A stretch of DNA of 34,733 nt from Bryobacteraceae bacterium. Its GTDB lineage: Bacteria > Acidobacteriota > Terriglobia > Bryobacterales > Bryobacteraceae. Of this stretch, positions 7,913 to 29,009 are shown one piece after another; positions within the stretch are counted from its first letter, which is position 1; every line of letters begins with the position of its first letter. The notes below the pieces were generated by a model. The model searched no databases. It saw nothing but the letters and a program-made list of their open reading frames with translations, and was not told the DNA's origin. The translations under genes were made by a program, and so were the position numbers. The stretch lies in NCBI GenBank assembly GCA_030041035.1, contig JASHOO010000551.1:1-34733 (forward strand), in the 5' to 3' direction.

Positions 7913-10132
7913 TCAACGCCGGTTGGCGCGGGCAGTGCGCTCGATCCAGTGGCGGAACATCTGGACGAAGTCGGTGGCCTGCTTGGCGGAGTAGAGCTCG
8001 TCGGTGCGGAAGTGCATTTTACGGCTCCAGTTGGGGTACTGCCAGGTGGTGCCGGGAAGATTCTGCTGCGCGGTCTCCTTGGTCAGGTCTTCCTGGTTGA
8101 CCAACAGCAGCATTGAAGGCGTGGAAGCGAGGAAACCGATGACGGCGTTGTGCAGTTCCCCGGTGAGCTCGGGGATATCGCGAGCAAAACGCGGATACCA
8201 GGAAGGAAGCAGGCCTGCGGCGAGGAGCGCATCCAGCATCTTCTGCTTTTCGACTTCGCGCGCGGCGCGCTGTGCCTGGTAATTGGCCTCATCGGGAATG
8301 ACGCCGGCGCGGCGACGCTCCTCGATATCGCGGTGAATCCAGAATCCGGCGAGCGTGGGGAGATCGTGGGTGGTAGAGGAGACGAGCGCCTGAGGAGAAT
8401 AGTCGGACGGTTTGCGAAAGTTGCCCTGCCCATCTTTTTCGAAATACAGAAGCCGGTAGCTCAGGATGCCGAAGCGCGCGAGAGTCTGGCGCACCTCGGG
8501 CTCAACGGTGCCCAGGTCTTCGCCGATCACGATGACTTTGTGGCGGACACTTTCGAGAGCGACGATGCGGATAAGGTCATCCGAATGGTCGCGGACGTAA
8601 GCGCCGTGGGCGGCGTCGGCACCATCGGGGATCCAGTAGAGGCGGAAAAAGCGCATGACGTGGTCGATGCGGAGGGCGCCGCCGTAACGGCAGTTTTTGC
8701 GAATGGATTCGACGAAGAGCTGATAGCCGGATTCCTGGTGGCGGGCGGCGTTGGGAGGAGGAAAGGCCCAGTCCTGGCCCTGAGGGGAGAAATCGTCCGG
8801 TGGCGAACCGACGCGGCAGCCGGCGGCGAAGAAGGAGCGGTGGGCCCAAAGGTCCGAACCAAAGCGGTCGGTCGCGAGGGCAAGGTCGTGATAGAGGCCG
8901 ATGGCCAGGCCTTTATCGCGGGCGTGCTGCTGAGCGGCGGCGAGCTGCACGCTGATCTGCCACTCCAGGTACTGATAAAACAGGACCAGGCGCCAGTGTT
9001 TCTTGCGGAAGGCTTCGGTTTCCGGGGAATCGGGATTGCGAAAAGGCTCGGGCCATTCGGTCCATAACCAGACGTCCGGCTTGCGGCTGTGAATCCATTC
9101 GTCTAATGCGCAGTAGGTGGCGAAGCGGCGCAACAGATCGCCTTCGCGCTCGACGTACTGCTGAAACTCGCGTGCACGGGCGGAGCCGGCACGGTACTCG
9201 CGCAGGAAGGCGGCGAACAGGGGCTTCAGGAAGCGCATTTTGAGCGCGTGGACGCGTTCGTATTCGACGAATTCGGAGTCGCGCAGGGCGGAGACTTCCT
9301 GCTGAATTGCGGGCTGCGCCCAAAGACGCTGCGCACGCGGGCAGGCGGCGAAATCGGGAATGCCCTCGACATCGAGATAAAGCCAGTTCTGATAATAGAT
9401 GGAGTTGGGCAGGTAGGGGCTGGTGTTGTAGGGACGACGGTTGTGGATAGCGTGGAGCGGGTTGAGAGCGACGAAGCCGGCGCCGACTTCATCGGCCACC
9501 CAATCCAGAACGGCCTGGAGATCCCGAAAGTCACCGCATCCCCAATTGCGTTCGGAGCGGATGCCGTAGAGCGCGATGGCGATGCCGGCGGCGCGGAGGC
9601 CTTCAGGCCGATAGGCGCAGTCGGGCGCCACGATGAGCCGCATGGAGGCGCAGGCGCCACCGACCCGGACCTCGACATCGTGATATCCGAGCGGAAGTTC
9701 GTCGGCGAGCGGCACGAATTTGCGCACGTGGCCAGTTCCGTTGAACTCCATGGTCGCGGCGACAGGAAGGCCGCGAAGCGGTACCTGAGAAACGGCCGGC
9801 GAGCCATTTTCCGGCTTCACGGTGACCTGGGCGTCGAGATCGGCGAGATCGGCGGGGAGGTTGAGGGCAAACTGCCGGGGGCGCTGGCTCACACTGATCA
9901 CGAGACAGGGCGCGACCAAGCGCGACCACTCCTGGCGAGCGTGGGCAGCGATCGCTTCATCTAACTCCTGCTTGCTACCGGTGGAGACGCCCAGCGAATG
10001 GAGGATGGCGCGTTTGGTTTCAGGGGGCGTAACGTGTGGTTTGCCCCAAATATCCCAATAGTCCGGCTGGATGCCCCAAAGTTCAGCGGCACGGTCGAGG
10101 GCTTGATCGTAGTTGGAGGAGGCGGTCGGCAC
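7913..10132 (-). CDS. malQ: 4-alpha-glucanotransferase (amylomaltase, GH77)
   Basis: This 739-residue cytoplasmic enzyme moves alpha-1,4-glucan segments between maltodextrins or glycogen and acceptors. The N-terminal 170 residues are the extra beta-sandwich region seen in long MalQ proteins. The GH77 barrel follows, with '[16 protein letters not shown]' (about 188-202), '[17 protein letters not shown]' (224-240), the nucleophile region '[12 protein letters not shown]' (Asp490), the acid/base '[13 protein letters not shown]' (Glu538) and the transition-state Asp590 in 'STTHDLPTL'. All three catalytic carboxylates are present. The start is a GTG at 10132, 66 bases from the divergent nuoB gene. 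No other glycogen or maltose gene is adjacent, so its regulation is not evident. Confidence 0.95.
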
Positions 10133-27778: not shown

Positions 27779-28185
27779 AAGCGTACCGCTGTATCCGTAG
27801 AACGCCTATGGGGCACATGCGACTCCAAGTAGCGCTGCTCATAGCTCGGGAAGCGTAATGCTAACGCTGGCATAGGTTTTTGCTGGTAGCCTAGTGGAGT
27901 GTTGAAATACAGCTAGACCACTACCGGACACCTGAAACGCATTTCTAGCCACGTTTCCGCTCGAAGTTTTCAACGTTTACGCGGTGTCCTGGATCTCTGT
28001 AAACCATACATCCAGGCTGACTTAGGTCCTTGCCGCCGCGCCGTCTTTTGTGCCGAACGCTGGAATTCCAATTCTGCGATGCGGAGCGGTGCCACGCGCC
28101 ATTTCCGTACACGCCAAAAATAAACTTTCCCCCCGCTAATTGTTCCCTTCCACGGCGCATGTAGAGAGTGAGGGAGGTAACACAA
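27779..28185. other. Gene-poor stretch before the leader-peptide gene
   Basis: In these 407 bases no reading frame resembles a protein. Base composition is more mixed than in the flanking genes. A weak stem AGCGT...ACGCT occurs near 27856-27873 without a T-tract. The part nearest 28186 should hold the promoter of the peptide gene; AT-rich bases at 28115-28130 are the only hint. Confidence 0.4.
28173..28180 (+). promoter_or_regulatory. Ribosome binding site GGAGGTAA
   Basis: A near-perfect anti-16S match sits eight bases after GGAGG before the ATG at 28186. It decides this start over the upstream GTG at 28168 and is strong evidence that the small peptide is translated. Confidence 0.75.
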
Positions 28186-28395
28186 ATGGAAGACCTCAAG
28201 AAACAGGAATCTGCGGTGGATTCAACCGAACTCACAGGCGAGCAGTTGGATGCGGTGAGCGGCGGCGATTTATTAGAATACACATCTGTTCAAGGCCTAA
28301 CAAACGTTTTTTGTCCTGCGTGCACGACCGACGACGCCATCGGCGCGATCGCCTCCGTGGGCGCGGCAATAGTGAGCACGGTGAAGAACCTGTAG
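28186..28395 (+). CDS. Double-glycine leader peptide, candidate bacteriocin/RiPP precursor
   Basis: This 69-residue peptide has the layout of a secreted peptide precursor. Residues 1-27 form an acidic leader ending in 'ELTGEQLDAVSGG', the classical pattern cut after Gly-Gly by C39-type peptidases. The remaining 42-residue core starts at Asp28, carries a CxxC pair in 'NVFCPACTTDD' (Cys43 and Cys46) and ends in a small, hydrophobic, Gly/Ala-rich helix ('AIGAIASVGAAIVSTVKNL'), as in class II bacteriocins. A strong GGAGGTAA precedes the start. No exporter, peptidase, modification enzyme or immunity gene is in the window. It could be a bacteriocin-like peptide, a RiPP with a disulfide or thioether, or a signalling peptide; the exact family is not determined. 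Confidence 0.75.
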   Translation: MEDLKKQESAVDSTELTGEQLDAVSGGDLLEYTSVQGLTNVFCPACTTDDAIGAIASVGAAIVSTVKNL

Positions 28396-28449: not shown

Positions 28450-28620
28450 GTGATCAACACGGGCGCGGGTAGCGCCGCACACTTTGTCTTGATTAAGCTT
28501 CAGAGTGAGAAGCCTCAGCACTCGCAAGCCCCGACAAACGACGAGTGTGAGCTCACAGACGCGGACTTCGAAAACGTGGCGAGAGGAAAATGCCCAACGT
28601 CTGGCCACGCTCCACAGTGA
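28450..28620 (+). CDS. Second leader-like small peptide (GTG start)
   Basis: This 56-codon frame lies 54 bases after the first peptide on the same strand. Residues 34-46 read 'ELTDADFENVARG', matching the leader of the first peptide in spacing (ELT-x6-V-x2-G), although the first Gly of the pair is Arg. Only ten residues follow ('KCPTSGHAPQ'), so the core is either very short or the gene has been truncated. The GTG at 28450 has AAAGGA seven bases upstream; a TTG at 28489 would give 43 residues. I infer a decayed or unusual paralogue of the first peptide. Confidence 0.4.
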   Translation: MINTGAGSAAHFVLIKLQSEKPQHSQAPTNDECELTDADFENVARGKCPTSGHAPQ

Positions 28621-29009
28621 TCACACCGGATATGGAGCACAGAAGATTGAATGCAACGCGCGGATCTCGACGGTTTGGCAGCTGCCGCGCGAATTGCGAA
28701 TGACGACCGCTGCCACGATTCTGCGGTCCTGCGTGGCCACCCCATGGCTTATCAAAGTGATGGAGCATTTTATGAAATATTTAGAACTCCCTTATGCCTT
28801 CTTTATGAGCCGTGGGCTAATGTCGTGGCTGAGGTAAGCTTTCCGCGATTTGCCCTCACGAGGGAATTGCAAGACCTTCGTAATGGAGAAATATTGCGAA
28901 GCTAACGCTTGAACGATGGGTAATCCCCCATACGAACGCAAGCAGCCCGGGGAAGTTTTCTTCCGCGAGCTGCGCCTAACCAAACACTCCAGTCAGCCTG
29001 AAGCCAGCA
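28621..29009. other. Gene-poor stretch, one doubtful 84-codon frame and a long hairpin
   Basis: A frame from ATG 28651 to 28905 (84 codons, same frame as the two peptides) and an overlapping frame to 28837 exist, but neither resembles a known protein and both lack a good ribosome binding site. At 28942-28973 the transcript can form a long stem: GCAGC pairs with GCTGC, enclosing CGGGGAAG-TTTT-CTTCCGCG with one mismatch. The region ends at a terminator hairpin ahead of the aspartate kinase. Confidence 0.4.
28942..28973 (+). other. Long RNA hairpin upstream of aspartate kinase
   Basis: The arms GCAGC/GCTGC and CGGGGAAG/CTTCCGCG (one G-G mismatch) close a TTTT loop, giving about 12 base pairs. 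It lies 38 bases before the T-tailed terminator. It may be part of a regulatory leader; I could not match it to a known riboswitch. Confidence 0.35.

What the first reader, a model, noticed from the sequence alone, without database searches (positions are those of the whole stretch)
28186..28395. Orphan double-glycine leader peptide with CxxC core
Seen directly: a strong ribosome binding site, a 27-residue acidic leader ending in LDAVSGG, and a 42-residue core with a CxxC pair and a Gly/Ala-rich hydrophobic tail. Known: such leaders are cut by C39 peptidase ABC exporters in class II bacteriocins and several RiPP classes. Inferred: this is a secreted antimicrobial or signalling peptide. No exporter, peptidase, modifying enzyme or immunity gene is in the window, so maturation must occur in trans or the peptide belongs to an undescribed type.
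Basis: partly seen in the sequence, partly recalled or inferred. Interest (0 to 1): 0.75.

Follow-up and report, generated by a model that had tools for sequence, protein, structure and literature searches.

The report
Scattered peptide family sharing one leader
This is a real gene for a small, probably secreted peptide, one of five in this bacterium that share the same switch-on region and removable front part but have unrelated active parts, and that are probably all cut and exported by a single pump encoded elsewhere in the genome.

Summary
In detail: 28186-28395(+) encodes a 69-aa peptide with a 27-aa double-glycine leader (…STELTGEQLDAVSGG) and a 42-aa core. It is the only leader-like ORF in the window (shuffles give 0.04). 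It is not an orphan in the genome. Four more genes on three other contigs share its ~70 bp of upstream DNA and its leader. Leader codons are under purifying selection (dN/dS about 0.1-0.2). After the GG all similarity ends: the cores are unrelated and only this one contains cysteine. A sixth peptide has a related leader but a different upstream region. Exactly one C39-peptidase ABC exporter was found in the genome, an NHLM/NHLP-type export locus on two other contigs with no precursor gene beside it. Its C39 domain is intact and closest to LahT. The best explanation is a dispersed family of promoter-plus-leader units with different cores, cleaved and exported in trans by that system. Neither the leader nor the upstream element was found in any other genome searched. 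Core modification and biological activity are unknown; the CxxC is a feature of one member, not of the family. Known logic (NHLP, prochlorosins, class II microcins), new leader family and arrangement.

The parts
28116..28185 (+). Conserved upstream element (presumed promoter and 5'UTR): A-tract, AACTTTCCCCCCGCTAATTGTTCCCTTC, GCGCATGTAGAGAGTGAGG, RBS
   Evidence: Aligned with four paralogues; GCATGTAGAG invariant and CTAATT/CCAATT present in all five. Pattern found 5 times in the own genome, 0 in 398 other genomes of the class, control 0. DNA match to the C21 copy runs from about 28116 into the leader. Not resolved into -35/-10; no sigma-70-like site found.
28186..28266 (+). 27-aa double-glycine leader MEDLKKQESAVDSTELTGEQLDAVSGG
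   Evidence: Paralogues at E 2.6e-8 and 1.2e-4 by single sequence and E<=2.2e-14 by profile. dN/dS 0.10/0.88 against C376, 0.25/1.15 against C21. L(-12), L(-7), V(-4), G(-2), G(-1) match published C39 recognition positions (PMC6363468); position -8 is Q, not E.
28267..28392 (+). 42-aa core peptide with FCPAC and a Gly/Ala-rich hydrophobic tail (stop codon 28393-28395)
   Evidence: Translation. No detectable similarity to paralogue cores (shuffle test). Only member with Cys. AlphaFold helix 48-67 at low confidence, pLDDT 55.

Best explanation
The gene encodes a precursor of a small secreted peptide. It belongs to a dispersed family of at least five single-gene loci in one genome. Each locus has the same ~70-bp upstream element and the same short double-glycine leader, followed by an unrelated core. 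The leader is probably recognised by the C39 domain of the genome's only C39-ABC exporter, an NHLM/NHLP-type type I export system (C39-ABC, second ABC, HlyD) encoded elsewhere. That system would cut after GG and release the 42-residue core outside the cell. Shown: ORF, leader conservation under purifying selection, shared upstream element, core divergence, exporter with intact C39 domain and no precursor beside it. Inferred: co-regulation, cleavage by this exporter, secretion. Open: whether the core is modified and what it does. A microcin/bacteriocin-like role in competition is the likeliest guess, a signal the next.
For: Leader paralogues within the genome. Shared upstream element specific to the family. 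Leader codons: 9 synonymous against 3 non-synonymous differences between C490 and C376+. Cores unrelated. One C39-ABC exporter: strong C39 hit on C414, TIGR03796 C39-ABC partial at a contig edge, TIGR03794 HlyD and TIGR03896 above their cut-offs, TIGR03797 above its cut-off on C175. The four other C39 hits are 225-389-aa soluble C39-like proteins. C39 domain most similar to LahT (6mpz), aligned through Cys, His and Asp-Pro motifs. No leader peptide gene found beside the exporter.
Against: No physical link between precursor and exporter. That C414 and C175 are one locus is inferred from complementary fragments of the same protein. No outer-membrane channel was sought. No homologues outside the genome, so the core cannot be tested by comparison between species. 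Leader family models (NHLP, Nif11, bacteriocin signal) match P0001 only below their cut-offs or not at all.
Confidence: 0.74

Rival explanations
1. The precursor is a lanthipeptide or other RiPP substrate modified in trans by one of the genome's LanM enzymes, then exported; the CxxC and Ser/Thr residues of the core become thioether rings.
For: Class II LanM on C514 (TIGR03897, 1016 bits), with no precursor recognised in the 12 kb examined, and LanM fragments on C384 and C515. The core has two Cys and several Ser/Thr.
Against: The three C384 precursors beside a LanM have a different leader ending in SGA. None of the other family cores seen has a Cys, so thioether rings cannot be a family function.
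Confidence: 0.12
2. A peptide pheromone or signal for population sensing, exported by the same system, without antimicrobial activity.
For: Shared upstream element suggests co-regulation. No immunity gene recognised nearby. Acidic core.
Against: Signals are usually conserved, whereas these cores are unrelated to each other. No receptor gene adjacent.
Confidence: 0.1
3. A decaying or chance ORF: a dispersed repeat element carrying promoter and leader that happens to run into random sequence at each site, so that the cores have no function.
For: Cores are unrelated and the family is restricted to one genome. Second-frame leader-like stretches lie downstream of two members. The C612 relative is frameshifted.
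Against: The leader is under purifying selection and leaders plus GG are intact in all five. Each complete core is an open frame of 27-42 codons, but this is short enough that chance is not excluded for a single core.
Confidence: 0.12

Closest known systems
NHLP / Nif11-type leader RiPP precursors with the NHLM export cassette (TIGR03793/03798 with TIGR03794/03796/03797; PMC2887384)
   Same: GG leader conserved, hypervariable core, the exporter thought to be what conserves the leader, many precursors per genome; the export cassette itself is present in this genome.
   Different: The leader here is 27-35 aa, not the long nitrile-hydratase- or Nif11-like leader; the NHLP model matches only its last ~14 residues, below cut-off; no modifying enzyme is tied to it.
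Prochlorosins (ProcA/SyncA; PMC10783134)
   Same: Many precursors with one conserved leader and unrelated cores served by one maturation system.
   Different: Prochlorosins have long Nif11 leaders, Cys-bearing cores and ProcM; the other family members seen here lack Cys, and no LanM is linked.
Class II microcins / class II bacteriocins with double-glycine leaders (bacteriocin_sig TIGR01847, Bacteriocin_IIc PF10439)
   Same: Short leader ending in VSGG, Gly/Ala-rich hydrophobic tail, C39-ABC with HlyD export.
   Different: Core is acidic; Pfam Bacteriocin_IIc matches below cut-off (15 against 27.1 bits); no adjacent exporter or immunity gene.
Cyanobacterial bacteriocin precursors (CTB family NF038167 and those of PMC3140520)
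   Same: Double-glycine leaders, very little core conservation, HlyD and C39-ABC export.
   Different: NF038167 matches below cut-off (14.5 against 32 bits); the cyanobacterial precursors surveyed in that paper were those near their transport clusters.

Membership tests
Double-glycine-leader (C39-processed) peptide precursors | Leader ending in GG/GA with hydrophobic residues at -4, -7 and -12 | tested here: met
   L-12, L-7, V-4, G-2, G-1 in C490; same pattern in all paralogues (positions from PMC6363468). The reported E at -8 is Q here and E in C21.
Double-glycine-leader (C39-processed) peptide precursors | A C39-peptidase ABC exporter in the genome | tested here: met
   NHLM ABC1 on C414 with C39 at E 2.4e-34, TIGR03796 partial, Cys/His/Asp motifs aligned to 6mpz
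Double-glycine-leader (C39-processed) peptide precursors | Cleavage after GG by that exporter | not testable with these tools
   Needs the purified C39 domain or mass spectrometry
NHLP RiPP precursors (TIGR03793) | Nitrile-hydratase-related leader, score above 50.9 bits | tested here: not met
   12.2 bits, only the last 14 positions match
Nif11-type precursors (TIGR03798) | Nif11-like leader domain above 32.3 bits | tested here: not met
   Not listed for P0001 at E<=10
Class II bacteriocin, Bacteriocin_IIc (PF10439) | Score above 27.1 bits | tested here: not met
   15 bits, E 0.025
Class II bacteriocins / microcins | Antimicrobial activity and cognate immunity protein | not testable with these tools
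   No candidate immunity gene recognised nearby: the neighbours are an ARPP-1 protein and an aspartokinase-like protein
Lanthipeptides | Precursor with Cys linked to a LanM/LanB/LanKC | tested here: inconclusive
   LanM enzymes exist elsewhere; the core has two Cys; no linkage; other family cores lack Cys

The most novel reading that the evidence does not exclude
A previously undescribed, species-restricted system in which one promoter-plus-leader unit is copied around the chromosome and joined to ever new core peptides, so that one exporter and one regulator display a changing repertoire of secreted peptides from scattered single-gene loci.
Probability: 0.3. Interest if true: 0.7.

Novelty: new variant of a known kind. 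Interest (0 to 1): 0.5.

Why it matters
RiPP and bacteriocin mining usually starts from an exporter or enzyme and looks next door. This family would be missed, because its genes stand alone and are recognisable only by a shared upstream element and leader. If confirmed, it offers a compact natural case of core-peptide diversification behind a constant leader, in a poorly explored group of bacteria. The shared upstream element gives a direct way to collect further cores and to ask what turns them all on.

Tried and rejected
Single-sequence search of 150 relatives: only chance matches, mostly inside long frames. Leader profile in 236 other family genomes and 395 other phylum genomes: no full-length leader; weak partial hits such as G033, G167, G035, G323 are other GG-leader peptides or chance. 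Two scans of 84,980 species genomes, leader patterns and upstream DNA pattern: nothing confirmed; the leader scan's tblastn cut-off may miss a 27-aa match, and records close to the window's genome may be left out. Empty-site comparison: rejected, because the aspartokinase orthologues of relatives are only 49-52% identical and the upstream ARPP-1 gene is not beside them. Sigma-70 promoter and terminator scan: nothing above chance. Structure prediction of the precursor: pLDDT 55, not used for a fold search. The other C39 hits as exporters: rejected, they are soluble proteins. A further weak DNA match on C621 holds no leader ORF. A first attempt to read three of the C39 frames used the wrong strand and was repeated.

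Full report
Observation. The ORF at 28186-28395(+) is present as described: 69 residues, a 27-residue acidic leader ending in LDAVSGG, a 42-residue core with FCPAC, and a strong RBS. A leader of this type with an RBS occurs once in the window. Markov-shuffled windows give 0.14 on average, 0.04 with a strict GG.

The gene is not alone. A search of the window's own genome (6.85 Mb, 780 contigs) found the leader in four other genes: C376:1996(+) MEDFKKQESTVDSTELTGEQLDKVSGG; C21:21485(-) MEDLKKQESTVASTELVQAELDKVSGG; C376:1802(-) and C215:16177(+) MED(L/F)KKQ…SEVLSENQLETISGG. The two C376 genes are head to head, their start codons 193 bp apart. The C215 copy is cut off by the contig end. A sixth gene, on C138, has a related leader (MSEQTKSKGSSEELTKEQLEGVSGG) but no shared upstream DNA.

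What is shared and what is not. Upstream, about 70 bp align in the five genes, with an invariant GCATGTAGAG and a (C/T)AATT block. The pattern of upstream element plus start codon occurs five times in this genome and in none of 398 other genomes of the class. The leader is under purifying selection: C490 against C376+ shows 15 identical, 9 synonymous and 3 non-synonymous codons, dN/dS 0.10/0.88. The leader is therefore translated and matters as protein. Directly after GG the similarity stops: pairwise core scores are no better than shuffles. C376(-) and C215 are a recent duplicate pair, with 7 differences in 147 bases.

The exporter. Among five C39 domains in the genome, four are similar 225-389-aa soluble C39-like proteins. 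The fifth, on C414, is the N-terminal half of an NHLM C39-ABC exporter (TIGR03796, partial at the contig edge), next to the NHLM HlyD protein (TIGR03794, above cut-off) and a cyclic-nucleotide-binding transport-associated protein (TIGR03896, above cut-off). Contig C175 starts with a fragment that fits the missing C-terminal half, followed by the second NHLM ABC subunit (TIGR03797, above cut-off). That the two contigs are adjacent is an inference. The C39 domain is closest to LahT among solved structures and aligns through the Cys, His and Asp-Pro motifs. LahT is described as tolerant of many double-Gly leaders (PMC6363468). No leader peptide gene was recognised beside the exporter, so its substrates are probably encoded elsewhere. 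The leader has the positions reported for C39 recognition: L(-12), L(-7), V(-4), GG.

Modification. The genome has class II LanM enzymes. One is preceded by three precursors with its own leader family ending in SGA. Nothing ties the MEDLKKQ leader to a LanM, and cysteine-free cores cannot carry lanthionines. Most likely the cores are unmodified, or at most disulfide-bonded in C490, but this is inference. YcaO and radical-SAM enzymes were not searched for genome-wide.

Distribution. The leader profile found no full-length match in 236 other genomes of the family or 395 others of the phylum. Scans of 84,980 species genomes confirmed none. Within these limits the family is restricted to this species or its very near relatives. 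Other GG-leader peptides of different leader families exist in this genome (C746, C582, C612) and in relatives (G033, G167, G035).

Comparison with the known. Conserved leader, hypervariable core and a shared exporter is the logic described for NHLP/Nif11 precursors (PMC2887384) and prochlorosins (PMC10783134), and low core conservation is known from cyanobacterial bacteriocins (PMC3140520). By model scores the peptide belongs to none of these named families. What appears new is a short-leader family of lone genes that carry a common upstream element. I know of no description of this family; two paper searches returned none by title or abstract, which is a limited test.

Verdict. A real, secreted-peptide-type gene; maturation in trans is well supported by inference; activity unknown. 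Interest 0.5, new variant of a known kind.

Noticed in passing
28451-28621 (+): Just downstream lies a second small frame (GTG start, VINTGAGSAAHFVLIKLQSEKPQHSQAPTNDECELTDADFENVARGKCPTSGHAPQ) with a degenerate leader-like stretch (ELTDADFENVARGK); it resembles the end of a long leader in relative G035 (E 0.026) and may be a decayed precursor.
   Followed up: partly
L050 1519-1692 (-) (C376): In another frame overlapping the end of the C376(-) peptide there is a second leader-like sequence, ELSANELENVAGG, followed by TFRITNIRVNATGPIPPSGTLTAA, with no start codon seen in its own frame: a frameshifted or overlapping second precursor, or an assembly error.
   Followed up: partly
L088 2215-2865 (C384): Three tandem precursors (leader …LSEADLESVSGA or similar, cores with Cys) upstream of a LanM that is cut off by the contig end: a probable class II lanthipeptide cluster.
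   Followed up: partly
L073 near 9504-9545 (-) (C612): Leader-like …LEELTNEQLDQVVGG|LTNGTICSVALPTQRPVAFLPVDGEV close to genes that look like pqqB, pqqC and pqqE (not scanned); its MSEQTK start is in another frame, so it looks frameshifted.
   Followed up: partly
L071 7498-7930 (C746): Two adjacent leader peptides with almost no core: …DEISQEDLSKISGG|RQHKP and …GELTGKQLEDVAGG|QSATDDWQV.
   Followed up: no
L052, L053, L054, L055 (C602, C438, C252, C326): Four paralogous soluble proteins with a C39-like domain, three of them seen to continue into a cysteine-rich zinc-ribbon-like region; function unknown.
   Followed up: no
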